DNA of 64,000 nt. Source: a virus. The notes under the pieces were generated by a model. It was not told the origin of the DNA, searched no databases, and was given only the letters and a program-made list of their open reading frames with translations. The position numbers and the translations under genes were made by a program. Each line of letters starts with the position of its first letter. The stretch's first letter is position 1. Below, piece by piece: positions 4,927 to 57,901 of the stretch. The stretch spans positions 1 to 64,000 of IMG/VR virus record IMGVR_UViG_3300050821_002494. One strand, given 5' to 3'.

Positions 4927-6894
4927 TTACAACTTCACGAAGACGTTCATCACCAGCGTAGACTGCACGATGCCGAAGGAGGCGGTTGTGCCGGACGACG
5001 TACCGCCGAGAGTGTTGCCGCCGTTGCTGGTGATGGCGGCCGTCGAACCGGACGCGGTGACGCCGTCACCAATGCCAGCAGCAAATATGACGCCGCCGGG
5101 GGCCGCGAGGCCGACGCTGGCCGCCGTGACTGAACCACCGACGGTTACTGATACGCCGCCACTATTCACCGTGACTGTGCCGGACACAGTCGCAGAGCCG
5201 GAGTAAGTCGTGGAGGTAGTGCCATTATTAGACAGCTGTGCGCCCGGCGTCGAGCTAGCAAACAGAGACGACAGGCGGTTCGCGTTGGCAGACGTGCCGA
5301 GCGTGTCCATGCCCGCGAGCACGACGCCACGAAGATCGGGGACGGTGATGGTCTTGTTGGCAGCGAAGTCAGCGGCAGCCGACGCGCCTCGGCCGCCCGA
5401 TACGGTAGCCTGCGCGTTGGCGTAGTTGTTCCACAGCGCCGTGAATAGATTGACGGTGTCTGCGGCGGCGCGGAGTGTAGCGACAGATGCGGCGTTGCCG
5501 ATAGTCAGGCCGTTGGAGAGCACCCAGCCGGGCTTCGATGAAGCGATGGAGTACTTGATGTCGCCGGGCTGGTCGCCGCCGTTGATGGACGGCACTAGGC
5601 CGTTGGCATCGAGCTGCAGCATGAGGCTGGCGTCCGCGAGGCCGACGCCAGCAGACTTGTTAACCGGCGCGGAGGTGCCGAGTGCGGCCGTGGTGACGGT
5701 CGTCAGTCGGCCGAAGGCATCGACCGTGATGACCGGGACGGCGGCGTTTGAGCCATAGGTGCCGGCAGTAACACCCGGATTTGACAGCTCGACAGAGCCC
5801 GTCGTGGTAAGTGTGAATGGGCCACCAGCGAAATTGGCAGAGAAGTTGATCGAGGTGACGGTACCGACTGCGCCAGAGAACGCAACGGCGACGTTAGAGC
5901 CGTTGCTGCGTAGGATAGAGAACGAGCCCTGCGGCACCGATACGCCGGGGTCGCTGCCGTTGGTCTGGAAGCTCAGTGAGAAGGCGCCGCTCGTGTTGTT
6001 GCGCACGAACCAGTAGCCGACGCCTGTGCCGAGCTGAACCATCACGTTGTTGACGAGCAGGCCGGAGTAGTCCTGAACCTGCGCGGCGATCTGGATGGAC
6101 GACAGCGGGAACGGCGTCGCTGCACCAGTCATGTTGATGGTGGTTCCAGTCACGGTGCTGACCACCGCGCGGCCGTAGCCGAGAGACCAGAAGTTGGTGC
6201 CGTCACTGAAGATGACGGCGCTCTCGGTGGGGTTCAGTATCTTGGTGGCGTTGTTGTCGATGAGCGCGCCGCCCGACGGCGTCCACGTCAGCGTGCCGGT
6301 GCCCTGATTGATGACGTACACGAACCAGCCGTTGCCCAGCGTAGCTGGCGCAGCGGGCGTGAACACCGTGGCGCCACCCTCTTCGAGCAGCACCTTAGCT
6401 CGGTCGGCGGGGCCCGGCGAGTAGTTGGAGATCAGGGTGACCGTCTGTAGGCTCTGGTTGAGCTGAGTGACGATGGCTTGCAGGCCCGCGCCGGCAAGCG
6501 CGGCGGCGTTGGCGTTAGAGACACCCGCACCGAACTGAACGCCTGCCCAGACGCCGGCCGCCGAGGTGTTGATCAGCAGCCAGAAGTACCACGCCTGCCC
6601 AGATGCGACGGTGCCGATGACGTTGCCGGCGTTGTCGGTGACCATGTAGGTATTGGCTCCGGTGTTACGGAAGAGAACGTCCTGACCCACTGAGACCTGT
6701 GTGGCGTCGGGCAACGCGACCTGCAGGTTGGTCGACTGCGCGAAGACGTCAATCTTCGATGCGGCGGGGTTGGAGCCCGGCGGCGCATTCATCGGCCACG
6801 TCAACGCGAGGTTGGCGTTGATGGTGTAGCTAACGTAGCTCAGCTGAGCGGGATCGATGGTCAAGCCACCGAAGAGTTCATTAAAGTTGGTCAT
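4927..6894 (-). CDS. Tail fibre / collar-domain protein
   Basis: 655 aa. The N-terminal 150 residues are a beta-rich attachment-like region. The middle is Thr/Ser/Gly/Asn-rich, including the fibre motif VITVDAFGRLTTVTT. The C-terminal part has GDIKYSIASSKPGWVLSNG and TITVPDLRGVVLAGMD, typical of a phage tail-collar domain, ending in a Gly/Thr-rich tip. It is likely the receptor-binding fibre. Its ATG overlaps the preceding stop (TAATG). Confidence 0.7.
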   Translation of the reverse strand: MTNFNELFGGLTIDPAQLSYVSYTINANLALTWPMNAPPGSNPAASKIDVFAQSTNLQVALPDATQVSVGQDVLFRNTGANTYMVTDNAGNVIGTVASGQAWYFWLLINTSAAGVWAGVQFGAGVSNANAAALAGAGLQAIVTQLNQSLQTVTLISNYSPGPADRAKVLLEEGGATVFTPAAPATLGNGWFVYVINQGTGTLTWTPSGGALIDNNATKILNPTESAVIFSDGTNFWSLGYGRAVVSTVTGTTINMTGAATPFPLSSIQIAAQVQDYSGLLVNNVMVQLGTGVGYWFVRNNTSGAFSLSFQTNGSDPGVSVPQGSFSILRSNGSNVAVAFSGAVGTVTSINFSANFAGGPFTLTTTGSVELSNPGVTAGTYGSNAAVPVITVDAFGRLTTVTTAALGTSAPVNKSAGVGLADASLMLQLDANGLVPSINGGDQPGDIKYSIASSKPGWVLSNGLTIGNAASVATLRAAADTVNLFTALWNNYANAQATVSGGRGASAAADFAANKTITVPDLRGVVLAGMDTLGTSANANRLSSLFASSTPGAQLSNNGTTSTTYSGSATVSGTVTVNSGGVSVTVGGSVTAASVGLAAPGGVIFAAGIGDGVTASGSTAAITSNGGNTLGGTSSGTTASFGIVQSTLVMNVFVKL

Positions 6895-39421: not shown

Positions 39422-39451
39422 GGGGTAAGGCCGCGCGATGGGGCTTGTCAA
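39422..39451 (-). promoter_or_regulatory. Leftward promoter of the divergent pair
   Basis: TTGACA, 18-nt spacer, TACCCC on the minus strand, matching the TACC-type -10 of other leftward promoters here. Its -35 overlaps the rightward -35 in the palindrome CTTGTCAAG. Confidence 0.5.
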
Positions 39452-39473
39452 GCGGCTGCGAGAGGCGTATATG
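39445..39473 (+). promoter_or_regulatory. Rightward promoter of the divergent pair
   Basis: TTGTCA, 17-nt spacer, TATATG. It points to the 39500 gene 27 nt beyond and thus starts the rightward early region. Confidence 0.65.
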
Positions 39474-39499: not shown

Positions 39500-39910
39500 A
39501 TGAAGATACCCGACAGACAGCTTTATCCCGACCCCGTGACTGCCTTCGAGTTCGGGCAGCGCTGCGCCCGCAACTTCGCGGACATGGACCGCCCCGTGAC
39601 CGACTTCCGCTGGATGTTCGACAACCGCGACGGCACCGAGGGGACGTGGGAGGACTTCTGCGAGGGCTTCAACGGCTTCAGGCCCTGCACCCACTTCGTG
39701 GGCTTCAGGGGCGAGGAGTTCTGGTCAGCGGTGCGCGTGTGGGGCCGCCCCGACTTCACGCACCGCCACTGGGACCGCCGCGTGCCCGGCGACGTCGCGC
39801 CCGGCGACACGGTGGTGTTCGCGCGAGGCACCGATCAGGACCCCTTCGTGCCGTTCGTGTTCAACGACAGCGACGTGGATGTGCAGGCCTTTGAAAATAA
39901 ATCGCGCTAG
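39500..39910 (+). CDS. First rightward gene, unknown function
   Basis: 136 aa after GGAGGCAAGTC. FEFGQRCARNFADMDRPVTD, TWEDFCEGFNGFRPCTHFVG, HRHWDRRVPGDVAPGDTVVF. It has three Cys and a Trp/His-rich end. The stop TAG lies inside cassette A. Unknown host-takeover candidate from position. Confidence 0.6.
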   Translation: MKIPDRQLYPDPVTAFEFGQRCARNFADMDRPVTDFRWMFDNRDGTEGTWEDFCEGFNGFRPCTHFVGFRGEEFWSAVRVWGRPDFTHRHWDRRVPGDVAPGDTVVFARGTDQDPFVPFVFNDSDVDVQAFENKSR

Positions 39911-39943
39911 GGTGTTGACGACCCCGCCAAGAGGGAGTAAGTA
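39893..39943 (+). promoter_or_regulatory. Cassette A: promoter plus reverse terminator
   Basis: GAAAATAAATC, then a GGGT/ACCC stem around TTGACG (39915), 17-nt spacer, TAAGTA (39938). On the minus strand the stem is followed by GATTTATTTT. The promoter serves the 51-aa gene. Confidence 0.65.
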
Positions 39944-39949
39944 GAGGTC

Positions 39950-40105
39950 ATGTTTGATTTTCCCCTCGCCTTCTTCGATGCGATCCGGCTTCGGATCGAG
40001 TTCGAGATGTTCCGGTCTCTCAGCCGGAACCACCACTTCGACGACGCCACCGGCCGGAGGCACTTCGTTGCGGCCCGGCTGGCGGCCTTCAAGAGGGCAA
40101 AATAA
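39950..40105 (+). CDS. Small aromatic/basic protein
   Basis: 51 aa: MFDFPLAFFDAIRLRIEFEM then HHFDDATGRRHFVAARLAAF. GTAGAGGTC before the ATG. It ends AAA TAA in the next cassette. A short GR.HFVAA tail; unknown. Confidence 0.5.
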   Translation: MFDFPLAFFDAIRLRIEFEMFRSLSRNHHFDDATGRRHFVAARLAAFKRAK

Positions 40106-40148
40106 ATCGCGCTAGGGGGTTGCAATCCCCTAGCTTCGGGCGCATATT
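40098..40148 (+). promoter_or_regulatory. Cassette B: promoter plus reverse terminator
   Basis: An 8-bp perfect stem GCTAGGGG/CCCCTAGC carries TTGCAA (40120) in its loop, then 17 nt and CATATT (40143). The reverse strand has stem then GCGATTTATTTT, a good intrinsic terminator for leftward transcripts. Confidence 0.7.
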
Positions 40149-40176
40149 AAAGGCTCACCAGCCGGAGATCGCCACC

Positions 40177-40674
40177 ATGGCCAAGTCATTCTACGCAGTC
40201 GACCCTCAGGGCGTCGTCCACATCCGCAAGAGCCAGAACCGTACCTACGTCGCGACCGTGGTCGTCCGCGTCGGTCGTACACAGGTCGACCGCTACTTCG
40301 CCCGCGTCGAGGCCGAAGGCAAGCGGGCCGGCGAGAGCTACGACCGCACGGTCGACGAGAGCAAGGGCATCTTCCCGAAGCGCGAGCAGTGGCGCGGACC
40401 GGAGGCCCTCAAGAGCTGGCAGGACTTCGCCGTCAAGTACCTCGTCAAGCCTGACGGCTACGGCCCCGGCCGCGACGCCGCCATCGCGAAGGCGAAGGCG
40501 CACGCCCTCAAGGTGGCGGAGGAGTACGAGGCCAGCGGCCGCTGGGACCGCTATGAGAACGCCGGCTGGACCAGCCGCACTGACCTCGCGCAGAAGCTGG
40601 CGGCCCAGACGGGCGGCGAGCAGGTGGTCATCCTCGAAGCCATCGAGGGCAAGCCACCGAAGGCCGCAAAATAA
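40177..40674 (+). CDS. Protein of unknown function
   Basis: 165 aa from the ATG with GGAGATCGCC upstream. SFYAVDPQGVVHIRKSQNRT, YVATVVVRVGRTQVDRYFAR, SKGIFPKREQWRGPEAL and HALKVAEEYEASGRWDRYEN. One alpha/beta domain, Lys-rich end. Ends AAA TAA in cassette C. Confidence 0.6.
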   Translation: MAKSFYAVDPQGVVHIRKSQNRTYVATVVVRVGRTQVDRYFARVEAEGKRAGESYDRTVDESKGIFPKREQWRGPEALKSWQDFAVKYLVKPDGYGPGRDAAIAKAKAHALKVAEEYEASGRWDRYENAGWTSRTDLAQKLAAQTGGEQVVILEAIEGKPPKAAK

Positions 40675-40721
40675 ATCTCCCAGACCCCTTGTGCGGCCCG
40701 GCGAACGGGAGTACAAGGGGT
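40668..40721 (+). promoter_or_regulatory. Cassette C: promoter plus reverse terminator
   Basis: TTGTGC (40689), 17 nt, TACAAG (40712). The two boxes lie in opposite arms of a perfect 9-bp stem ACCCCTTGT/ACAAGGGGT. Reverse strand: CTCCC...GGGAG then ATTTATTTT. Confidence 0.65.
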
Positions 40722-40749
40722 CCTCGCCACCAACAACTAGGAGTTCACC

Positions 40750-41004
40750 ATGTCTGTATTCAATCGCGATATGAACCTGATGGCACGCGGCAACCCCGGC
40801 GTCGCCGAGCGCGTGCTGGGTGCCCCCGCCCTCGACCGGGACCCGATGCCGGCCTCGCCGGTCGAGCGCCTGATGAAGCAGGCCCAGACCGCCATCGAGC
40901 AGGCGATGCACGACGACGACAGCATCGAGGCGGCCATCGCCGTGGATGACGCCATGAGCTTCCTGCGGAGGGCGCAGGAGCTGATCCGAGAGGAGATGCA
41001 GTGA
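40750..41004 (+). CDS. Small helical protein
   Basis: 84 aa: NLMARGNPGVAERVLGAPAL, PVERLMKQAQTAIEQAMHDD, AMSFLRRAQELIREEMQ. The ARGN.GV start recurs in the 56-aa gene at 42645. TAGGAGTTCACC upstream. Confidence 0.55.
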   Translation: MSVFNRDMNLMARGNPGVAERVLGAPALDRDPMPASPVERLMKQAQTAIEQAMHDDDSIEAAIAVDDAMSFLRRAQELIREEMQ

Positions 41005-41186
41005 TGAGCGACCTCACCCTAGCCACCTATCTGGAGGGCAACTATCAGGCCTATGCGAGCGATCCTCGCATGGTCGTGCCCTTCACCCGTGACGTGTGGC
41101 TGCGCAGCCACACCGAGGAGCGCTACCACAACGGCCGCGTGATCCGGGTCGGCAACTGGCAGCGGATGGAGGACGTCGACGCCTGA
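41004..41186 (+). CDS. Small protein of unknown function
   Basis: 60 aa from the ATG overlapping the previous TGA. LATYLEGNYQAYASDPRMVV then RYHNGRVIRVGNWQRMEDVD. Unknown. Ends just before cassette D. Confidence 0.5.
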   Translation: MSDLTLATYLEGNYQAYASDPRMVVPFTRDVWLRSHTEERYHNGRVIRVGNWQRMEDVDA

Positions 41187-41236
41187 AAATAAATCGGGTG
41201 GGGGGTATTGCAATCCCCACCCAGAGGGTTTAAGTA
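41185..41236 (+). promoter_or_regulatory. Cassette D: promoter plus reverse terminator
   Basis: GGGTGGGG/CCCCACCC (8 bp, perfect) around TTGCAA (41208), 17 nt, TAAGTA (41231). Reverse strand: stem then GATTTATTTT. Confidence 0.7.
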
Positions 41237-41281
41237 GAGTTCTCCACCGCGTAGAGTTCCACCCCACACCGGAGTTCCCGG

Positions 41282-41830
41282 ATGTCCTACCCTCACGTCG
41301 ACAACACTCTCGCCAAGGCGACCAAGGAGATCGTCTCGGCGATCATGCCCGCCGGCTTCGATACGGCGCACGACGATGCGGCCCCCGGCTCGCTGGAGGC
41401 CTGCACCGACTACTTCAAGAGCCACGGCCGGATGTGCGTCGGTGAGGGCTTCAATGCCCGCACCTCCATCTTCGCCGACGCATGGACGACCCACGCCTTC
41501 GCGGCGTGGCACGACTTCTGCCACGTTCAGGGGCAGTGCGCATTCGACCCGGCCGGCGAGCGCCGCGTCGACGAGATCATGCAGCAGCATCTGGCTCGGT
41601 GGTGGACGACCTCCGCCCGCCCGGTGACGCAGGACGCCTTCCTGAGGGCCAGCGCGGTCCTCAAGATGTTCAATCTCGGCCGGCTGGAGTACTGGCTGGA
41701 GTACGGCGAGCAGCCGGCAGACCCCCGCCAGTTCCTCTACGGCTACCTGACGGCGCAGGCGCGCATCGCCCAGCCGGAGCCCTGCAGCAAGCAGAGCGAC
41801 ACCGTGATACCGATGGTGAGGGCCCTCTAG
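41282..41830 (+). CDS. Conserved phage protein with WHxxxH motif
   Basis: 182 aa. TTHAFAAWHDFCHVQGQCAF then PAGERRVDEIMQQHLARWW gives H....WHdfcH....F...GE..v..Q, a pattern I associate with phage proteins of unknown role that may bind metal. The first 60 residues hold DYFKSHGRMCVGEGF. No catalytic assignment. Confidence 0.55.
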   Translation: MSYPHVDNTLAKATKEIVSAIMPAGFDTAHDDAAPGSLEACTDYFKSHGRMCVGEGFNARTSIFADAWTTHAFAAWHDFCHVQGQCAFDPAGERRVDEIMQQHLARWWTTSARPVTQDAFLRASAVLKMFNLGRLEYWLEYGEQPADPRQFLYGYLTAQARIAQPEPCSKQSDTVIPMVRAL

Positions 41831-41865
41831 GCCCTCACTTCCACCCCACCCAACAGGAGATTGTC

Positions 41866-42057
41866 ATGACCAAGGAATACATGGAGCTGCTGCTCAGAGA
41901 AGCCGCAGAGGCCCACCACACCTACGAGGCCACACTCGGCCACCCCGACGAGAACTGGCAGGGCTGGTACGCCCAGCACATGGTCGAGCAGCTGGACCGC
42001 GACGCGGCCACGCTCGACGCCCCTGCCAACTTCGGCTACCGCTTCGCGAACCACTAA
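41866..42057 (+). CDS. Small helical protein
   Basis: 63 aa after AACAGGAGATTGTC: TKEYMELLLREAAEAHHTYE, GWYAQHMVEQLDRDAATLD. Unknown. Confidence 0.55.
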   Translation: MTKEYMELLLREAAEAHHTYEATLGHPDENWQGWYAQHMVEQLDRDAATLDAPANFGYRFANH

Positions 42058-42073
42058 ACCAACGGAGACTACG

Positions 42074-42616
42074 ATGATCGACCAGACATTTGCAGACGTC
42101 GCTACGCCGCTGATCCGCGCCCGGCTGGAGAAGGTTCTCGGCATCGAGTTCCCAAAGGTGCCTGTCGTCGTGAAGGAGCACCTCACATGGGAGGACAGCT
42201 GGGGCTACACCCCAGAAGACGTCGCCGAGTACCCCGCCGGCCCCGAGGGCGTCGCGATGGGCATCACCAACTTCGATCAGGACGAGGTGGCCGCCCCCAA
42301 CCATGTGATCCTGTACGCCAAGCAGCTGAGCCCTAGCTACAACATGATGGCGGCACTGATGACAGGCGTGGGTCCATTCGATGAGTACGCGTGGGCAGCT
42401 GCCGTGCTGGCGCACGAGCTGATCCACACCACCCTGCCGGCCTACTATGGCCATGTGGGAGCCTTCGTTGACCGCGCGCGCCGCGCCGGCCTCATTGGTC
42501 CCCCGACGTCTTCCTTCCCGGGGTCAGACTTCGCGCAGTGGGTCGAGCAGGTGGTCGTGCCGGCCTATAAAAAAGTGGCCAGCCCTATTGCAATCTCCCG
42601 CGTGATGGGAGTATAA
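42074..42616 (+). CDS. SprT-like metallopeptidase A
   Basis: 180 aa. VLAHELIHTTLPAYYGHVGA FVDRARRAG carries HExxH and the downstream GHxxxF of SprT/zincin-type phage proteins. The N-terminal 100 residues resemble those of the second copy at 42819. The C-terminal 15 residues (KKVASPIAISRVMGV) are encoded by cassette E, so the gene lost its usual stop. It may cut or bind a host protein. The family role in phages is unclear. Confidence 0.6.
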   Translation: MIDQTFADVATPLIRARLEKVLGIEFPKVPVVVKEHLTWEDSWGYTPEDVAEYPAGPEGVAMGITNFDQDEVAAPNHVILYAKQLSPSYNMMAALMTGVGPFDEYAWAAAVLAHELIHTTLPAYYGHVGAFVDRARRAGLIGPPTSSFPGSDFAQWVEQVVVPAYKKVASPIAISRVMGV

Positions 42617-42617
42617 G
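42567..42617 (+). promoter_or_regulatory. Cassette E: promoter plus reverse terminator
   Basis: TTGCAA (42588), 18-nt spacer, TATAAG (42612). CTCCC/GGGAG stem between them. Reverse strand: GGCTGGCC then ACTTTTTT. Confidence 0.65.
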
Positions 42618-42644
42618 AGGGCTCCAACAACGGAGTGACCCGAG

Positions 42645-42815
42645 ATGATGCTCTCTTTCGTAGCTGCCCAGATGCTCCTCGCCCGCGGCAACGCAGGCGT
42701 CGAGGCGGAGTTTGAGGCCCGCGAGCAGGCCGACATCGAGGCGCGGGCGGTGCGCAACGCGCCCGCGCAGTACTCCCGCCTGCCGGCGGCTCGTGAACAG
42801 ATGGACCCGGAGTAG
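42645..42815 (+). CDS. Small Ala/Glu/Arg-rich protein
   Basis: 56 aa from the first of two ATGs: FVAAQMLLARGNAGVEAEFE, EARAVRNAPAQYSRLPAARE. Shares M.LARGN.GV with the 84-aa protein at 40750. Helical. Confidence 0.5.
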   Translation: MMLSFVAAQMLLARGNAGVEAEFEAREQADIEARAVRNAPAQYSRLPAAREQMDPE

Positions 42816-42818
42816 ATC

Positions 42819-43340
42819 ATGCAGCTCTATCCACACATCCTGATCGACGCCATCGCCAACGCGGCGCGTCGTGACCTCTTCGAGCCGGCGGGGGTTGACC
42901 TCCCGCCGGTGCCGATCCAGATCGGGCTGGTCGGCAAGGTCAGCGCCGAGGATCGCGTCGATGCCCAGACCCAGTACATGCCGGCCCCCTCTGACATGAC
43001 GCGCCCCTCGAAGCGCGTGCTAGCGATTCTGGAGGCGGCCACTGTCCCGGTCCATGCGCCGTTCTTGCTGGCTATCACCAATGACCTAGAAGACTTCTAC
43101 GGCGGTCCCAAGGGCCGCCTCACGCTGGCCTCGACGCTGGTGCATGAGATGGTCCACACCGCCTTCGACAGCGCCGTAGGTCACGGCCCCCGCTTCGTGC
43201 GGCTGATGCACAAGGTCGGCCTCACCGGCACGCCGGAGAAGAGCGTCGCCAGCCCACGCTTCGAGCGCTGGTTCGACAAAACTGTGATGCCTGAATACGA
43301 GGCTCAGGTGGCCCGCATGGAGGAGATGATCAATGGATGA
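42819..43340 (+). CDS. SprT-like metallopeptidase B
   Basis: 173 aa. TLVHEMVHTAFDSAVGHGPR FVRLMHKVG shows HExxH plus GHGpxF, the SprT pattern. PSPRFERWFD-type C-terminal segment aligns with the FAQWVEQ segment of copy A, so they are paralogs. ATG 4 nt after the previous stop. Confidence 0.6.
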   Translation: MQLYPHILIDAIANAARRDLFEPAGVDLPPVPIQIGLVGKVSAEDRVDAQTQYMPAPSDMTRPSKRVLAILEAATVPVHAPFLLAITNDLEDFYGGPKGRLTLASTLVHEMVHTAFDSAVGHGPRFVRLMHKVGLTGTPEKSVASPRFERWFDKTVMPEYEAQVARMEEMING

Positions 43341-43638
43341 CCTGACTATCCCCGACTTCCTCCGGGGCTCCAGAGAGGGCCCCAAGCCTCGCTGGACTAC
43401 GCCGTGGAAGCGGATGGTCGCCCAGCGACCGGACTGCATCAAGTGGGATAACGCCGAGCGCTGGGAGGTGACCATTCCTAAGACCATGACTGGCGCCGGC
43501 CAGCCCGCCTTCGGAACCCGCTACGTGTGGGTGATCCCGGGCCGCAAGTGGACCGAGATCAGAGACGCCGAGGGCTACGCCAAGATCGCAACCGCCGACT
43601 GGAACCGTATGTCGGCAAAAGGAAGGAAAGTGTCATGA
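43333..43638 (+). CDS. Protein of unknown function
   Basis: 101 aa: DFLRGSREGPKPRWTTPWKR, ERWEVTIPKTMTGAG, YVWVIPGRKWTEIRDAEGYA. Beta-rich, Trp-rich. Overlaps the metallopeptidase stop. Confidence 0.55.
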   Translation: MDDLTIPDFLRGSREGPKPRWTTPWKRMVAQRPDCIKWDNAERWEVTIPKTMTGAGQPAFGTRYVWVIPGRKWTEIRDAEGYAKIATADWNRMSAKGRKVS

Positions 43639-43892
43639 ACGACAAGCTCCCGATGCGGGCCGCCGTGATGGTGCCCGGACAGAACCTCGTCGGTCTCGTG
43701 GATCGAGGCGACAAGGGCTACTACCCGATGCCTAGCTGGACGGCCAAGACTGCCGACGGCTGGAATGAACGCCACGGCGTGAGCCACGCCCAGCGCGAAG
43801 CGATGCTGGTTGGATCGATGTTCGGTTGGGATGTCCCCGGCGCGGACCCTGATCTCTACCCCAACGAGGGGCCACTGGAAGGGCGCTCGTGA
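43635..43892 (+). CDS. Protein of unknown function
   Basis: 85 aa from the ATG after AAGGAAAGTGTC: RAAVMVPGQNLVGLVDRGDK, GVSHAQREAMLVGSMFGWDV. Unknown. Confidence 0.55.
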   Translation: MNDKLPMRAAVMVPGQNLVGLVDRGDKGYYPMPSWTAKTADGWNERHGVSHAQREAMLVGSMFGWDVPGADPDLYPNEGPLEGRS

Positions 43893-44089
43893 GCGCCAAC
43901 GTCCCCTGCCGCTGCAAGCCGGTCGACCGGAGCCAGTGGCGGGTGAGGCAGCGTAAGTGCAATCACTCGGCATTCTCCGGCGGACGCTACACCCCGAGCG
44001 ACTACTCGGAGGTGACGTGCCTAAAGTGCCTCGGCAGCTGGCGCACGAAGGCGGACTACGCCGACAAGTTACCTGACTATTATATGTAG
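43889..44089 (+). CDS. Small zinc-ribbon protein
   Basis: 66 aa from GTG. NVPCRCKPVDRSQW, RKCNHSAFSGG and EVTCLKCLGSWRTKADYADK give C.C...C.H...C..C, a likely zinc ribbon. Unknown partner. Confidence 0.55.
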   Translation: MSANVPCRCKPVDRSQWRVRQRKCNHSAFSGGRYTPSDYSEVTCLKCLGSWRTKADYADKLPDYYM

Positions 44090-44098
44090 GAGAAATGC

Positions 44099-44260
44099 AT
44101 GCCAGCAGAACACAAACGTCCCGACGGATCGTGGGCTCAGGGCTATTATTGCATGCGCTGCGGCGCGGCTGGGCTCAATCTCTATGGGAGTGGCCACGAG
44201 AAGTGCCCACTCAATCCCGAGCTGGTCAAGCAATTGATCGAAGCCAACAAAAGGAAATAG
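44099..44260 (+). CDS. Small CxxC/HxxC protein
   Basis: 53 aa from the second ATG (GGAG 7 nt away). GYYCMRCGAAGLNLYGSGHE KCPLNPELV has CMRC...GH.KC, a zinc-knuckle. Lys-rich tail. Confidence 0.55.
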   Translation: MPAEHKRPDGSWAQGYYCMRCGAAGLNLYGSGHEKCPLNPELVKQLIEANKRK

Positions 44261-44262
44261 TT

Positions 44263-44592
44263 ATGCGTACCGAAATGAACGACCGCACGCTGGCGCGCTA
44301 CCTCGGGCTCGACCGCGAGGAATTCGATTGGCTGAAGCTCCGGCTGACGCCGGAGAAGCTGGAGGACTATCGGCTGCTCGCGGAGGTCGCTGTGACGCTG
44401 GAGCAGTACGCCACCCGCTACAACCGGCCGCCGAAGGCGACGGAGGAGAGCGACGCCGCCCTGATGGCCGCCCAGAGCCGCGCATTTGCCCGCCTAGAGC
44501 AAAACGCTCAGCACGGGGCCGGTCACCGCCAAGAGAGGGGCGACCGGCCTCTACGGCCAATTATGGGCGTCTGCTACCTTACGCGAAAATAA
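44263..44592 (+). CDS. Protein of unknown function
   Basis: 109 aa: RTLARYLGLDREEFDWLKLR, VAVTLEQYATRYNRPPKATE, then a Gln/Arg-rich end. Ends in cassette F (CGA AAA TAA). The helical N-terminus may be a small HTH. Confidence 0.5.
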   Translation: MRTEMNDRTLARYLGLDREEFDWLKLRLTPEKLEDYRLLAEVAVTLEQYATRYNRPPKATEESDAALMAAQSRAFARLEQNAQHGAGHRQERGDRPLRPIMGVCYLTRK

Positions 44593-44635
44593 ATCGCGGT
44601 GAGGGCTTGAAATTGGGGCCCAGAGGGCGTATCTC
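44585..44635 (+). promoter_or_regulatory. Cassette F: promoter plus reverse terminator
   Basis: TTGAAA (44607), 17-nt spacer, TATCTC (44630). Reverse strand: GGGC...GCCC stem, then GCGATTTATTTT. Confidence 0.65.
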
Positions 44636-44660
44636 TAGGTCTCGCCAACAGGAGCACCCC

Positions 44661-44864
44661 ATGGAACGCACATTCCGCGTCGACTACGATAACGGCTTCG
44701 AGGTCGTCCGCGCCAAGGACATCTTCTCCGCCGCCGCGCAGCTGAAGCGCGCCTACAAGCGGTTCTTCAAGATGCCGATCAGCATCACCGAGACCACGCG
44801 CTGCAGCGCTCCGGTTGAGCCCCGCGAGGGCATGGACAAGCCCTATCCCCGTCACGCCCGCTAG
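44661..44864 (+). CDS. Small protein of unknown function
   Basis: 67 aa after AACAGGAGCACCCC: TFRVDYDNGFEVVRAKDIFS, AAQLKRAYKRFFKMPISITE. Small alpha/beta fold, basic. Unknown. Confidence 0.55.
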   Translation: MERTFRVDYDNGFEVVRAKDIFSAAAQLKRAYKRFFKMPISITETTRCSAPVEPREGMDKPYPRHAR

Positions 44865-44873
44865 GAGCGCCAC

Positions 44874-45203
44874 ATGATCGTCTACCAGATCGCTCTGCCC
44901 ATCATGTCGAACGACGGCCTGACGGAGTACTCCCACAATCTGCACGAGTGGGAGCAGATCGCCCTCGACGAGGTCGGCGGCTATACTGACCTCGGCATCC
45001 GCCACGGTGTGTGGCGCGACGTCGGCCGCACCTACAGCGAGAACATGCAGGGCTACCAGCTCGCCATCGACAGCGACCGCCCCTTCGCGCTGGGGCGCCT
45101 GATAGACGCCGCCAAGCGGCTGTTCCCCGATCAGGTCGCCTTCTATCTGGCGAAGGTCGGCACCGCCGAAATTATTTACAACAATCAGGTCGCGGTAGCT
45201 TGA
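44874..45203 (+). CDS. Protein of unknown function
   Basis: 109 aa: EWEQIALDEVGGYTDLGIRH, RTYSENMQGYQLAIDSDRPF, RLIDAAKRLFPDQVAFYLAK. Its last base is shared with the Mom-like start. Unknown partner. Confidence 0.55.
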   Translation: MIVYQIALPIMSNDGLTEYSHNLHEWEQIALDEVGGYTDLGIRHGVWRDVGRTYSENMQGYQLAIDSDRPFALGRLIDAAKRLFPDQVAFYLAKVGTAEIIYNNQVAVA

Positions 45204-45723
45204 TGGCCGCCCGCATCCTCGCTGGAGAGGCCCTCGCGGCTGCCAAGGCGACCATACGGGCCCAGCACTACACCCACACGGTGCCGAGCGGGAAGAGCCA
45301 CTACGTGGCCTTCGGTGACGCCATCGTGGTGTGGTCGATCCCAGCGAACAAGAACATCGCCAACTACGTTGGCGGCGGCCGCGTCTGGGAGTTGGCCCGC
45401 CTGTGGGCGCCCGACGGGCACCCGCCAAACCTGTTGACGCAGGCCATATCCGCCGGCGTGAAGGAGCTTCAGCGTCTGTATCCAGACCTCGACGCCGTCG
45501 TGTCCTACGCTGACCCCAATCAGGGGCACCTAGGCGGCATCTATCGGGCTGCCACTCTGGCTCTAGGGGCATGCGCAAGGCCGAGATCGAGGCGCTGGGC
45601 TACACCCAGCTGAAGCTGCCGGGGAAGCACCGCTTCATGCGGTGCTTGTCTCGCCGCTCCAAGCGGGCCTACAAAATAATTCGTCCGGGGCTATTGATTT
45701 CTGGCCCCGGCGAGCGTATCTAG
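45203..45723 (+). pseudogene. Mom-like DNA-modification acyltransferase gene, apparently -1 frameshifted
   Basis: Frame 1 runs from the ATG at 45203 to 45613 (136 aa): AQHYTHTVPSGKSHYVAFGD, IVVWSIPANKNIANYVGGGR, VWELARLWAPDGHPPNLLTQ, VVSYADPNQGHLGGIYRAA. This is the Mu Mom-like GNAT-fold pattern (vPsGk..., EL.RL..pd..p.N..., SYADP..GH.G..Y.A). After YRAA it turns into Arg-rich shadow sequence. The expected C-terminus (GMRKAEIEALGYTQLKLPGK, FMRCLSRRSKRAYK) lies in the -1 frame from about 45560 to 45723. Either a decayed gene or a programmed -1 shift. Frame 2 ends in cassette G. Confidence 0.6.
45672..45722 (+). promoter_or_regulatory. Cassette G: promoter plus reverse terminator
   Basis: CCGGGGC/GCCCCGG around TTGATT (45694), 17 nt, TATCTA (45717). 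Reverse strand: 7-bp stem then ACGAATTATTTT. Confidence 0.65.
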
Positions 45724-45750
45724 AGCGGGCGATAACAACCGGAGACTTCT

Positions 45751-45948
45751 ATGAACGACTTCACTCTCTACAACCACGGCTCCATCGTCGTCCTGACGCC
45801 GATGACTGAGGCCGCTCGCAGCTGGATGCAGGACAACATCGACGTCGAGAACGCCCAGATGTGGGGCAAGGGCGTCGTGGTCGAGCCCCGCTACGTGGGC
45901 TCCATCCTCGACGGCCTCACGGTCGACGGCCTCACGGTGTCGCTGTGA
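45751..45948 (+). CDS. Small conserved phage protein, paralog 1
   Basis: 65 aa: IVVLTPMTEAARSWMQDNID, GVVVEPRYVGSILDGLTVDG. LTP.T..A..W...N pattern, shared with the gene two downstream. Unknown. Confidence 0.55.
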   Translation: MNDFTLYNHGSIVVLTPMTEAARSWMQDNIDVENAQMWGKGVVVEPRYVGSILDGLTVDGLTVSL

Positions 45949-47918: not shown

Positions 47919-48139
47919 GCGTCAATCCAGTCTGCCGGCTGTGCGGCTTCATCCATCACAACGCAAACGTGGAGGGCGAGTGCCGCCGCTTCGGCGTCTT
48001 CACGAAGGCCGAGCTGGAGATCGCGAAGCTGCGGCAGCAGATCGACCGACTGACCTACAGGCCGTCGGGTCCGTCGTCCTCGTCTTCAGGCTCTGCGTCT
48101 GACCGCACGCCACCGCGTGGCGGAGGCGACGCGACTTGA
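47915..48139 (+). CDS. Small Cys/His protein, tail overlaps the opposite-strand gene
   Basis: 74 aa from GTG. NPVCRLCGFIHHNANVEGEC RRFGVF gives CxxC...C. The last 28 residues (Ser/Gly/Pro-rich) are antisense to the end of the minus-strand gene. The tail may be an accident of convergent packing. Confidence 0.45.
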   Translation: MSVNPVCRLCGFIHHNANVEGECRRFGVFTKAELEIAKLRQQIDRLTYRPSGPSSSSSGSASDRTPPRGGGDAT

Positions 48140-48795
48140 AGGGCCGGCATCTGGGAGAACATCCACTGCGGGATGCGCTCCGCGAGCCGTACCGCCGCCT
48201 CAGTAACGAGGACGCTGCCCGAGATGGTAGCGATGGTCGCGTCACGCGCCCGGAACTCTTCCGGCTGCTCTGTCTCGCTGTATGGCATGAAGGCTGCGGT
48301 GAATGGGAGAAGATGCGCCGCCTCGACGTCGCTGTCGGCGAGTGAGAGAGCAGCGATACCTTGCGCGACGCGCTGCTCGAAGCCGTTCACGCTCTCGGCA
48401 CCTGCCGCCGTCATGATGTCTTCAGCGATCTTGCGCCGCATGGCCTGCGCGACACCCGCCGGGTGCTGCGTCGAAATGAACTGCATCGCGTTGTTGCAGA
48501 CTTCTGCTAGCTTGGGGTCTCGGACGCCAGCCAGAGCGATTGAGGCCATGCGGAACACGCAGCGCCAGCGCGTCGCGGCGTCGACCATGCCGACACAGCT
48601 TTCGAGCTTGTCGGCCGGCGTCATGGACGTGAGCGGCGTCCCATCGACAGAGCGAATGCGGAACAACAGAGACGGTGGTGCAAGCCGCGAGGCCTCCCAT
48701 ATGTCCTGCTGTGTGAGGCGCACCGGCAAGTAGTTCGCCTTGAACTGCGCGGGCGCCTTGATGCCGGGGTAGAGCACGAAGAATGAGCGAGCCAT
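48055..48795 (-). CDS. Lone reversed gene, unknown function
   Basis: 246 aa. ARSFFVLYPGIKAPAQFKAN, WRCVFRMASIALAGVRDPKL, RKIAEDIMTAAGAESVNGFE and a Pro/Glu/Asp-rich end. Folded alpha/beta start, helical middle. The only minus gene in a 20-kb plus block, with its own promoter and GAAGGG ribosome site, so it behaves like an inserted extra gene. No family recognised. Confidence 0.6.
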   Translation of the reverse strand: MARSFFVLYPGIKAPAQFKANYLPVRLTQQDIWEASRLAPPSLLFRIRSVDGTPLTSMTPADKLESCVGMVDAATRWRCVFRMASIALAGVRDPKLAEVCNNAMQFISTQHPAGVAQAMRRKIAEDIMTAAGAESVNGFEQRVAQGIAALSLADSDVEAAHLLPFTAAFMPYSETEQPEEFRARDATIATISGSVLVTEAAVRLAERIPQWMFSQMPALQVASPPPRGGVRSDAEPEDEDDGPDGL

Positions 48796-48880
48796 TGGTG
48801 TCCCTTCTGGAATTTGGCGGCGGGGTGATCATGGTGCCACTGGCGACTGAGGCCTACGCTGCGCCTGCCCGCCAGTCACC

Positions 48881-48910
48881 ATGGTAGCGTCGCTAGGGCT
48901 CGCTTGACAA
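48881..48910 (-). promoter_or_regulatory. Promoter of the lone reversed gene
   Basis: TTGTCA, 18-nt spacer, TACCAT on the minus strand, sharing 17 bases exactly with the promoter at 33152. A TTGACA faces right in the same palindrome (48904), although its -10 is weak. Divergent layout as at 39.44 kb. Confidence 0.6.
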
Positions 48911-51923: not shown

Positions 51924-52177
51924 TCGAAGTCAGCATCAGGAAGTTCTACGTGATTGAGGAAGACGGCGCCGACATGGTTCCACGCGTCGGCATTAATCGC
52001 CTGCCCACGCCCGAGGAGACGGCGCAAGCCGAGAAGGTCTTCGACGACATGGCGCGCGAGCTTGGCGCCCGCGAGATGACGGACGACGAGCGTAAGGACT
52101 ACATCGCCGCCGAGCAGGCCGCCGAGGATGAGGCCGACGATGGCGTTACCAGCTTCACCTTGCGGAGGCCTGCGTGA
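51920..52177 (+). CDS. Small acidic protein
   Basis: 85 aa: IEVSIRKFYVIEEDGADMVP, EKVFDDMARELGAREMTDDE. Helical and acidic. ATGA overlap with primase. Unknown. Confidence 0.5.
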   Translation: MIEVSIRKFYVIEEDGADMVPRVGINRLPTPEETAQAEKVFDDMARELGAREMTDDERKDYIAAEQAAEDEADDGVTSFTLRRPA

Positions 52178-52914
52178 TGGACTTCATCGAATTCCCCAAG
52201 ATCGCGCGCCTGAGCCGCGATATCGTGATCACCGAGAAGCTCGACGGCACGAACGCACAGGTGCTGATCATGCCTGACGACACCGGCGGCGTAGCTTATA
52301 GCGGCGCGGCCGACGAGCGCGTCGCCACCGTTGGCAACTACCTTGTGTTTGCCGGCTCTCGCTCCCGCTGGGTGACGCCGGAGCAGGACAACTACGGCTT
52401 CGCGGCGTGGGTCCGGGAGCATGCCTACGAGCTGTTCGACGCCCTCGGCGAGGGGCAGCACTTCGGCGAGTGGTGGGGGCGGGGTATCCAGCGCAACTAC
52501 TCCCAGACGGAGCGCCACTTCTCGCTCTTCAACACGAAGCGCTGGGGCACGCACTACAACGATAAGGGCCGCGTCGGTCCCTGCCGTGTTGTGCCTACGC
52601 TCTACAAGGGCCCTCTCGAAGACCACGGCGTGATGAAGGGCCTACGCTTCGCGATGACGCAGCTGCAGAACGGGGGCTCTGCGGCGGCGCCGGGCTTCAT
52701 GAAGCCCGAGGGCGTGGTGATATATCATCCTCAGGGCAACGTCCTCTTCAAGAAGACGCTGGAGAAGGACGAGGAGCCGAAGAGTAAGGCCTCTGCACTT
52801 GGTGAACTATTGACTATGCCATTCCCCACTCGTGACCAACTAGAGAAGATGGCTCAACAGGTCGCGGATGACGAGTGGCCCGGTGCCACACAGGCGGCGG
52901 AGGGCGGACGATGA
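52177..52914 (+). CDS. RNA ligase (nucleotidyltransferase superfamily, Rnl2-like)
   Basis: 245 aa. Motif I is KLDGTN at about 21-26 (VITEKLDGTNAQVLI). Motif III-like: GEWWGRGIQRNYSQTE. IIIa: HFSLFNTKRWG. Motif IV: MKPEGVVIYHP. Motif V: LFKKTLEKDEEP. It would seal RNA (or nicked nucleic acid) ends after covalent AMP attachment to Lys. Repair of cleaved RNA is one possible role. No partner kinase gene was noticed. Confidence 0.7.
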   Translation: MDFIEFPKIARLSRDIVITEKLDGTNAQVLIMPDDTGGVAYSGAADERVATVGNYLVFAGSRSRWVTPEQDNYGFAAWVREHAYELFDALGEGQHFGEWWGRGIQRNYSQTERHFSLFNTKRWGTHYNDKGRVGPCRVVPTLYKGPLEDHGVMKGLRFAMTQLQNGGSAAAPGFMKPEGVVIYHPQGNVLFKKTLEKDEEPKSKASALGELLTMPFPTRDQLEKMAQQVADDEWPGATQAAEGGR

Positions 52915-55933: not shown

Positions 55934-56037
55934 CGCGACGAGCGTGGCTGATCAACATCGACGAAGCTTATGGTAAATTCACCGACGCCGAGATCAGGCT
56001 AGGTGCATTCGCTCAAGAGCTTGGGTTGCTCGTATGA
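55873..56037 (+). CDS. Small helical protein
   Basis: 54 aa after GGGAGGAGCC: IINADAKHLEDLVREWALAR, DAEIRLGAFAQELGLLV. Unknown. Confidence 0.5.
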   Translation: MSIINADAKHLEDLVREWALARRAWLINIDEAYGKFTDAEIRLGAFAQELGLLV

Positions 56038-56150
56038 CCGAGCTGGCGAAAGCCATCGTGTTCGAGGCCGCGTACCAATACTGGCACGCGGTCTGTGGGT
56101 CACCCACGCGCGAGGTCTACATGCGTTCGTTTCTACAGCGAGGGAAATGA
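56034..56150 (+). CDS. Tiny protein before the helicase
   Basis: 38 aa: TELAKAIVFEAAYQYWHAVC, PTREVYMRSFLQRGK. ATGA overlaps on both sides support translation. Unknown. Confidence 0.45.
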   Translation: MTELAKAIVFEAAYQYWHAVCGSPTREVYMRSFLQRGK

Positions 56151-57901
56151 CAATCACCGTAGACGTCCAGCCCAATGCGGCTAGGATTGCGGGCCTCGAC
56201 CCGCTCGCGCTAAACGACTTGTTGATGGAAGCCCCGGAGCCGCCTCCTCCGGGGTTTGGTGCGTTGAGGCCGGTCACCTCGAACCTGCTGTACCTCTTCG
56301 AGAGGCTCCCGGGCGCCTTCTTCGATGACCCCGGCGGCTTGCTCATGCAGGCCCGCGCGCACCGCTTCATCGAGCGGCTGCACCGCGAGGAGCCCGGCGA
56401 CTACGAGAGGGACTGGCCGTTCAAAGTCACCCCGCTGCCGTATCAGCTGAAGGTCTTCACAGTCGCACGCAAGCTACAGCACTTCGCGCTCGCACCTACG
56501 GCGCCCGGCACCGGCAAGTCTAAGATGGTGATCGACATTGCTGCCGACAAATTCATGCGTGGTGAGATCGACTGCGTTGCAGTCATCTGTTCACCCCGTG
56601 GCGTGGCCCGCCAGTGGGTCAATAGAGCGATCCCGGAGCATATCACCGACAAGGTCCGGTGGTCGGCGGACTTCTGGCGCGCGACGAAGAAGCACTACGA
56701 CGTGGCGTATCCTAACACGAAGGTGTTGCGGTGGATGACGTTTCCCATAGAGGCTTTCTCGGGTACGACCGGCGCAGCGGCGGCCGCCCTAACGGCCTTC
56801 ATGCAGTCCGGCCGTTGCTTGCTCGTGGAAGACGAAAGCTCCCGCATCAAGGACCCCAAGGCTAAGCGCACGAAGGCACTCATAGGCGAGTGGAAGAGAG
56901 GCAAGCACGTTCCGGGCCTCGCGGAGATGGCGACGTGTAGAGCCATCCTCACTGGGACGCCGATCACGAAGGGCATCGAAGACCTCTGGGCGCAGTACGA
57001 ATTCGTCGACCCCCTGATCCTCGGCATGAGCAACTACAAGGCCTTCGAGGCGCGCTACTGCGTGCTGGTGCCGGCCTTCTGGCGTGCGCCCGCGTGGCAG
57101 ACCAAGGTCGCGGGCTACCGCAACACCGAGGAGTTCATCCGCAAGATCGCACCCGTTACCTTCGTCGTGCCTAAGGACGTCCTAGGGCTGCCGCCTAAGA
57201 GCTACGAGACCATCCCGGTGGAGCTGACGAAGGAGCAGCGGGCCGCCTACAAGGTGCTCCACAAGGGCACCGTGGAGGCCCTGAGAGATATGGGCATAGC
57301 GAACCCGAAGATCGCGATGACCAAGCTCACGCGCCTGCAGCAGCTGCTCTGCGGCCGCATTTACGCCCCCGGCGAGACGCTCGAAGAGCCGCCTGTCCTG
57401 AAGTCCATCCCGTCCAACCGCATCTCGACGCTGACGCAGTACATCGACGACAACGCACGCGACCGACCGACGATTGTCTGGTCTCGCTTCACGGCCGACA
57501 TCGAGGAGATCGCGGCGGCGCTGCGCAAGATGGGCCGTAACCCCGTTACCTACTATGGAGGCACAGATGACGACGCAAGAGACGCCGCAGTCGAAGCCAT
57601 CCGCCGAGGAGTTGCTACAGACTTTGTCGCGAACCCTGCTTGCGCGGGCATGGGCATCGACGGACTTCAGGAGACGGTCGAGCTGGCCATCTACTATACT
57701 AACTCGTTTAACCGTGAGCACAGATGGCAATCCGAGGATCGAATTCATCGACTGGGAATGTGTGGCACGGCCCTCTACGCTGACATGGTCGCACCCGGTA
57801 CCGTAGACGAGCTGCCACTCGCGGCCTTCAAGACGACGGCCGACTTGATCCAGTCACTGATGGATCGCCCAGAGATGATCCCCTATTTGAATGAGGACTG
57901 A
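56147..57901 (+). CDS. SNF2-type helicase/ATPase
   Basis: 584 aa from the ATG overlapping the 38-aa stop. Motif I: APTAPGTGKSKMVIDIAADK. Motif II-like: CLLVEDESSRIKDPKAKRTK. Motif III: RAILTGTPITKGIEDLWAQY. C-terminal domain: TIVWSRFTADIEEIAAALRK and HRWQSEDRIHRLGM (motif VI). This is the SNF2/DEAD-type layout used by phage replication or recombination helicases. It follows polymerase and precedes a nuclease-like gene. Confidence 0.75.
   Translation: MTITVDVQPNAARIAGLDPLALNDLLMEAPEPPPPGFGALRPVTSNLLYLFERLPGAFFDDPGGLLMQARAHRFIERLHREEPGDYERDWPFKVTPLPYQLKVFTVARKLQHFALAPTAPGTGKSKMVIDIAADKFMRGEIDCVAVICSPRGVARQWVNRAIPEHITDKVRWSADFWRATKKHYDVAYPNTKVLRWMTFPIEAFSGTTGAAAAALTAFMQSGRCLLVEDESSRIKDPKAKRTKALIGEWKRGKHVPGLAEMATCRAILTGTPITKGIEDLWAQYEFVDPLILGMSNYKAFEARYCVLVPAFWRAPAWQTKVAGYRNTEEFIRKIAPVTFVVPKDVLGLPPKSYETIPVELTKEQRAAYKVLHKGTVEALRDMGIANPKIAMTKLTRLQQLLCGRIYAPGETLEEPPVLKSIPSNRISTLTQYIDDNARDRPTIVWSRFTADIEEIAAALRKMGRNPVTYYGGTDDDARDAAVEAIRRGVATDFVANPACAGMGIDGLQETVELAIYYTNSFNREHRWQSEDRIHRLGMCGTALYADMVAPGTVDELPLAAFKTTADLIQSLMDRPEMIPYLNED

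What the first reader, a model, noticed from the sequence alone, without database searches (positions are those of the whole stretch)
39893..45723. Seven matching promoter/reverse-terminator cassettes between accessory genes
Seven intergenic segments (starts 39893, 40098, 40668, 41185, 42567, 44585, 45672) share one plan: AAAATAAAT or a close variant, a GC-rich hairpin, a -35 (TTGACG, TTGCAA, TTGTGC, TTGAAA, TTGATT), a 17-18 nt spacer and a -10 (TAAGTA, CATATT, TACAAG, TATAAG, TATCTC, TATCTA). Read on the minus strand, the hairpin is followed by ATTTATTTT-like T tracts, so each unit can start rightward RNA and stop leftward RNA. The hairpin sequences differ but the pairing is kept, which suggests selection on structure. 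The genes between them look like interchangeable cargo, so the unit may be a moron-like loading site or an antisense firewall.
Basis: partly seen in the sequence, partly recalled or inferred. Interest (0 to 1): 0.82.

Follow-up and report, generated by a model that had tools for sequence, protein, structure and literature searches.

The report
Repeated promoter linkers between phage genes
A bacteriophage places near-identical promoter-plus-hairpin linkers between small optional genes, and distant relatives show genes being swapped behind such linkers while the linkers stay, much like the known T4-phage shuffling cassettes but with the hairpin wrapped around the promoter's -35 element.

Summary
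All seven sites are real. Each has an AT-rich box (AAAATAAATC exact in five, one mismatch in one, degenerate in site 5), 11-12 nt, TTGnnn, 17-18 nt and a -10-like hexamer, at the start of the rightward early module of a 69-kb phage record (nearest isolates: Caulobacter phages, terminase 44%). The exact box followed by TTG at this spacing occurs nowhere else in the record. The hairpin is strong at three sites, weak at three and absent at site 5. Distant IMG/VR relatives (G010, L211, L215-L226, G007) carry the same plan. There the AT box keeps register with the -35, but in G010/L211 its strand bias is reversed, giving no leftward U-tract. This favours an UP-like promoter element over a reverse terminator; the firewall stays possible at sites 2, 4 and 7 here. 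Cargo exchange is supported in relatives. G010/L211 and L218/L222/L223 keep the cassette and the next conserved gene while the genes between are unrelated, with borders at or inside the linker. Best reading: insulated early-promoter linkers that let small genes be exchanged, working like T4-type PeSL cassettes. Transcription, termination and recombination are inferred, not shown.

The parts
39893..39949 (+). Cassette 1: AT box 39894-39903, -35 TTGACG 39915-39920, -10 TAAGTA 39938-39943; ATG at 39950, so the transcript may be leaderless; only a 4-bp dyad; upstream gene 39500-39910 ends inside it
40098..40176 (+). Cassette 2: AT box 40099-40108 (contains the TAA stop of ORF 39950-40105), dyad 40111-40134 around -35 TTGCAA 40120-40125, -10 CATATT 40143-40148; gene starts 40177
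40668..40749 (+). Cassette 3: AT box 40668-40677 (contains stop of ORF 40177-40674), -35 TTGTGC 40689-40694, -10 TACAAG 40712-40717, leader CCAACAACTAGGAG; gene starts 40750; dyad only with G-U pairs on the minus strand
41185..41281 (+). Cassette 4: AT box 41186-41195 just after TGA stop of ORF 41001-41186, dyad arms 41196-41203 and 41215-41222 around -35 TTGCAA 41208-41213, -10 TAAGTA 41231-41236; gene starts 41282
42566..42644 (+). Cassette 5: degenerate AT box TATAAAAAAG 42566-42575, -35 TTGCAA 42588-42593, 18-nt spacer, -10 TATAAG 42612-42617 (holds the stop of ORF 42074-42616), leader CCAACAACGGAG; no dyad around the -35
44585..44660 (+). Cassette 6: AT box 44586-44595 (contains a TAA stop), weak dyad 44603-44621, -35 TTGAAA 44607-44612, -10 TATCTC 44630-44635, leader CCAACAGGAG; gene starts 44661
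45672..45750 (+). Cassette 7: AT box AAAATAATTC 45673-45682, dyad 45685-45710 around -35 TTGATT 45694-45699, -10 TATCTA 45717-45722, leader ATAACAACCGGAG; gene 45751-45948 follows
41815..41865 (+). Promoter-less linker of related look: hairpin GGTGAGGGCCCTCTAGGCCCTCACT plus leader CCCAACAGGAG before the ATG at 41866
   Evidence: counterpart of the hairpin-leader linkers of G010
45751..45948 (+). Gene behind cassette 7; the one gene of the cargo region with detectable homologues in cassette-bearing relatives
   Evidence: 48% identical to L197:12142-12333
48055..48910 (-). Leftward gene 48055-48795 inside the rightward module, with promoter-like site TTGTCA-18-TACCAT at 48910-48881: a possible source of leftward transcription towards the cassettes

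Best explanation
Each cassette is a compact expression linker. It ends the upstream reading frame, places a GC dyad that can fold in RNA over the -35, and starts a new rightward early transcript from a sigma-70-type promoter (AT-rich UP-like box at about -57 to -47, TTGnnn, 17-18 nt, -10), usually followed by a short ribosome-binding leader. It serves one to seven small optional genes. Because the linkers are alike, recombination can exchange the genes between or behind them, so the region acts as a plug-in site. Shown: anatomy, fixed register, uniqueness in the genome, the same plan in relatives, and cargo turnover bordered by linkers in relatives. Inferred: transcription initiation, contact of the AT box with polymerase, the role of the hairpin (probably insulation or 3'-end protection of the upstream mRNA), and homologous recombination as the route.
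For: AT box ends 11-12 nt before TTG and the -10 lies 17-18 nt after it at all seven sites. In 43 unique IMG/VR sites chosen only for AAAATAAATCG-GGG-TTG, 9 have a good -10 at 17 nt, against an average of 1.0 at 25 other spacings, so the box marks promoters. UP elements lie at -40 to -60 and T4 early promoters combine UP, -35 and -10 elements (PMC2988021). Same plan in G010 (four sites), L211, L215-L226 and G007. AT content is kept while A/T polarity flips in G010/L211. G010 and L211: cassette 1 orthologous, the genes between it and the next conserved stretch unrelated, similarity resuming inside cassette 2. L218, L222 and L223: near-identical cassette and downstream gene with different cargo between. 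Unrelated cargo genes share one leader.
Against: No RNA data. The -35/-10 hexamers fail a generic sigma-70 scan, and an alphaproteobacterial host is only inferred. The dyad is weak or missing at four of seven sites, so one hairpin function for all seven is doubtful. Cargo exchange was seen in relatives, not around the window's own cassettes, because no relative near enough was found. Other large indels in L211 (7700-10464) are not bordered by promoter cassettes.
Confidence: 0.62

Rival explanations
1. Antisense firewall: read leftwards, the dyad followed by TTTATTTT is an intrinsic terminator, so each unit starts rightward RNA and stops leftward RNA.
For: All seven AT boxes are T-rich on the minus strand (6-7 T of 8); sites 2 and 3 pass a terminator scan; the stem at site 4 is followed by GA and then TTTATTTT. 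Leftward sources exist: the gene at 48055-48795 with its promoter-like site, and leftward genes right of 60.1 kb. G007 also has a stem followed by a T-rich tract.
Against: No usable stem at site 5, weak at 1, 3 and 6; terminator-like sites not enriched. In G010/L211 the tract is A-rich in leftward RNA; in L215/L219 the T-run lies about 6-8 nt from the stem.
Confidence: 0.2
2. The dyad is an operator: a phage regulator binds around the -35 and switches these early promoters together.
For: The related Caulobacter phage RLK has a sequence-conserved dyad TGCAAC-N7-TTGCAA, with TTGCAA at the -35 position, in several early gaps on both strands. ATTGCAAT is shared by cassettes 4 and 5, and TTGCAAT also by cassette 2.
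Against: Arm sequences differ between cassettes and even swap from G-first to C-first in G007, unlike a protein site.
Confidence: 0.12
3. Rightward insulator in the strict PeSL sense: the hairpin terminates upstream transcription before the new promoter.
For: The hairpin follows the upstream stop codon. G010 has promoter-less linkers with UUCG-capped hairpins in the same place. In relatives the stem is better kept on the + strand than on the minus (z 5.6 against 2.6).
Against: No U-tract follows the hairpin on the + strand at any of the seven sites.
Confidence: 0.15
4. Chance plus shared GC-rich composition: ordinary promoters with fortuitous stems.
For: Stems of this size are common in this 62% GC genome; four of seven are not above shuffles.
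Against: Pooled own-arm pairing exceeds 20000 permutations; AT box and spacing are far above chance.
Confidence: 0.08

Closest known systems
PeSL (promoter-early stem-loop) mobile regulatory cassettes of T4-type phages (Arbiol et al. 2010, doi 10.1093/gbe/evq006; text not held, known from memory and from PMC3950731)
   Same: Small repeated intergenic units with a promoter and a stem-loop between optional genes; gene content shuffles between them.
   Different: Not a T4-type phage; the stem-loop surrounds the -35 instead of being a separate U-tract terminator; an AT box at fixed distance; no evidence for mini-circles.
Promoter/inverted-repeat motifs before most left-side ORFs of haloarchaeal virus HGTV-1 (PMC3950731)
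   Same: Repeated promoter-like element with an inverted repeat before many small genes, compared by its authors to PeSLs.
   Different: Archaeal TATA-box promoter, unrelated virus; sequences not compared here.
Start-associated sequences (SAS/ESAS) of Cluster K mycobacteriophages (PMC3203893)
   Same: Repeated short elements, some with inverted repeats, before a subset of small genes.
   Different: SAS are 13-bp translation-start repeats with 17-bp conserved inverted repeats; here the arms are not conserved in sequence and the constant parts are promoter elements.
T4 early promoters of UP/-35/TGn/-10 type (PMC2988021)
   Same: A/T-rich element between -40 and -60 combined with -35 and -10.
   Different: No TGn element; poor -10 matches; -35 nested in a dyad.
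Morons of lambdoid phages (from memory)
   Same: Accessory genes with their own promoter inserted between phage genes.
   Different: Here one repeated linker serves runs of one to seven genes and no forward terminator is seen.

Membership tests
PeSL cassettes of T4-type phages | sigma-70-like early promoter inside each unit | tested here: inconclusive
   Spacing and AT box fit, but hexamers fail a generic scan; no activity data
PeSL cassettes of T4-type phages | stem-loop that is an effective terminator | tested here: inconclusive
   No forward U-tract; leftward U-tract with a good stem only at sites 2, 4 and 7
PeSL cassettes of T4-type phages | units lie between small optional genes of a variable region | tested here: met
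   Cargo shares no detectable gene with relatives except the gene at 45751
PeSL cassettes of T4-type phages | gene exchange bordered by the units | tested here: met
   In relatives G010/L211 and L218/L222/L223, not in the window's own lineage
PeSL cassettes of T4-type phages | member of the T4-type phages | tested here: not met
   69-kb record; terminase and virion proteins nearest to Caulobacter phages RW/RLK/KcrB/GB2A; so it is said to work like, not to be, a PeSL
PeSL cassettes of T4-type phages | mini-circles from recombination between units | not testable with these tools
   needs DNA from infected cells
UP-element promoters | A/T-rich element between -40 and -60 at fixed distance from the -35 | tested here: met
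Intrinsic terminators (leftward) | GC-rich stem followed at once by a U-tract | tested here: inconclusive
   Sites 2, 4 and 7 roughly; not sites 1, 5 and 6; not in G010/L211
Start-associated sequences of Cluster K | conserved 13-bp sequence GGGATAGGAGCCC near starts | not tested
   No dedicated search was run; the leaders seen here read CCAACAAC...GGAG

The most novel reading that the evidence does not exclude
A one-way traffic valve that doubles as a plug-in site: the same short DNA starts rightward transcription from a -35 nested in a hairpin, stops leftward antisense RNA, closes the upstream frame, and provides the homology for cargo exchange. Structure, not sequence, of the -35 flanks is selected.
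Probability: 0.15. Interest if true: 0.7.

Novelty: new variant of a known kind. Interest (0 to 1): 0.45.

Why it matters
It extends the PeSL idea (repeated promoter/stem-loop linkers that let phages trade small genes) to an unrelated phage lineage, gives nucleotide-level examples of cargo replaced between unchanged linkers, and suggests how to find such linkers: an AT box at fixed distance from a -35 that sits inside a variable GC dyad. Most of the cargo is unknown early genes, so the linkers are useful signposts to the exchangeable gene pool.

Tried and rejected
Direct blastn of 39.8-46.0 kb against phages: none. Single-protein searches with gp34-like and polymerase proteins: no relatives. 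Polymerase-alignment relatives (30-37%) lack the AT box. AAAATAAATCG-N-TTGCAAT in IMG/VR: 9 single hits, mostly in AT-rich contigs. The consensus-promoter pattern in bacterial genomes returned mostly AT-rich Clostridia and is not informative. Rfam: no match in 39-47 kb at E<=1. PADLOC: no defence-type hit for ten proteins of the region. Rejected: conserved T-tract as the general meaning of the AT box; hairpin present at all seven sites.

Full report
What the window is. The window is bases 1-64000 of a 69,246-base IMG/VR virus record, 62% GC. Terminase and a virion protein are nearest to Caulobacter phages RW/RLK/KcrB/GB2A (44% and 37% identity), so an alphaproteobacterial host is likely but inferred. 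Leftward genes fill 1-39.4 kb and again from 60.1 kb on; a rightward early/replication module runs from 39.5 to 60 kb and includes a polymerase and a helicase. The seven sites lie at the start of this module.

Check of the observation. All seven sites share an AT box, an 11-12 nt gap, TTGnnn, 17-18 nt and a -10-like hexamer. The box is far above chance. The hairpin is not uniform: strong at 2, 4 and 7, weak at 1, 3 and 6, absent at 5. Generic promoter and terminator scans are not enriched here. Upstream reading frames end inside the cassette, or at its AT-box edge, at every site: at the AT box (2, 3, 4, 6), shortly after it (1), or in the -10 (5, 7).

What the AT box is. Its distance to the -35 is constant, which places it at about -57 to -47. 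In IMG/VR contigs found with AAAATAAATCG-GGG-TTG, 43 unique sites show good -10s at 17 nt nine times, against an average of 1.0 at other spacings. UP elements are A/T-rich sequences between -40 and -60 (PMC2988021). In relatives G010 and L211 the box is AT-rich but with T on the top strand, which an UP-like element tolerates and a leftward U-tract does not.

What the dyad is. Own arms pair better than permuted arms (window 190 of 5040; pooled with 12 relatives' cassettes 0 of 20000). The pooled test is inflated by relatedness, because homologous cassettes of G010/L211 and of the L215-L221 group are included. The dyad can differ in sequence and even in polarity (CCCC-TTGCAA-GGGG in G007). Its function is open. 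Promoter-less linkers in G010 and the L215-L226 group carry UUCG-capped hairpins after stop codons, and one similar hairpin-leader linker lies at 41815-41865 in the window, so insulation or mRNA 3'-end protection is a reasonable guess.

Relatives and cargo. G010 (32 kb) has four cassettes, L211 two more with AT box and dyad, a third with a broken stem, and a fourth (near 6815) that lost its AT box; L215-L226 carry one each where checked; G007 has one. Of the window's early genes only 45751-45948 (and the helicase 56003-57901 weakly) has a detectable homologue in them, so the plan is shared while cargo is not. Between G010 and L211, cassette 1 is orthologous (80% over 128 bp), the genes after it are unrelated, and similarity resumes inside cassette 2, whose left half in L211 lacks the AT box. 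L218, L222 and L223 share the cassette and the same next conserved gene; the two to three genes between differ in identity and order, with the left border near the start codon or in the leader. Different cargo genes share leaders such as ATCAGCAACACAGGAG.

The Caulobacter phage RLK has a different repeated element, TGCAAC-N7-TTGCAA followed at about 17 nt by a -10-like TA, in several early gaps; the paper on this genus does not mention promoters (PMC11053796). Repeated early promoters may be common in this lineage while their upstream parts differ.

Verdict. The sites most likely are early-promoter linkers that insulate and exchange small genes, working like PeSL cassettes (PMC3950731; Arbiol et al. 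2010 not held) but not members of that T4-type family. The antisense firewall is possible at three sites and not supported as the general role. No transcription start, stop or recombination event has been measured.

Noticed in passing
window 45203-45723: Mom-like DNA modification gene (phrog_1384, 9e-23) appears split: ORF 45203-45613 matches only the first part of the profile and an overlapping ORF 45571-45723 in another frame runs through cassette 7. Frameshift, sequencing error or recoding not decided.
   Followed up: partly
window 42074-42616 and 42819-43340: Two related HExxH metallopeptidase-like genes (34% identity over 58 aa; both phrog_6361) lie on either side of cassette 5.
   Followed up: partly
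L104 3132, 5684, 7568, 9179, 10393, 11930: Caulobacter phage RLK carries a repeated promoter-like dyad TGCAAC-N7-TTGCAA in early gaps, also on the minus strand in the terminal repeats.
   Followed up: partly
L028, L038, L043, L054: Polymerase relatives including Bordetella phage CN1 carry repeated CTTTACTTCTTC and CTATACTTCTTC boxes, often paired about 23 bp apart, before genes.
   Followed up: partly
L197 11180, 11436, 11673: Promoter-less intergenic linkers with hairpin GGGGGCTTCGGCCCCC and leader CACCAACCAAAGG between early genes of G010.
   Followed up: partly
window 39445-39473: Possible first rightward promoter TTGTCA-17-TATATG without an AT box; its -35 lies in GCTTGTCAAGC, so a leftward -35 TTGACA overlaps it.
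   Followed up: no
window 39938-39950: At cassette 1 the -10 ends 6 nt before the ATG, so the mRNA of 39950-40105 may be leaderless.
   Followed up: no
window 52174-52914: RNA ligase domain gene (PF09414) between a Toprim gene and the polymerase.
   Followed up: no
L211 7700-10464: About 2.6 kb more DNA than G010 at the same place, not bordered by a promoter cassette; G010 has a long stem-loop there.
   Followed up: no
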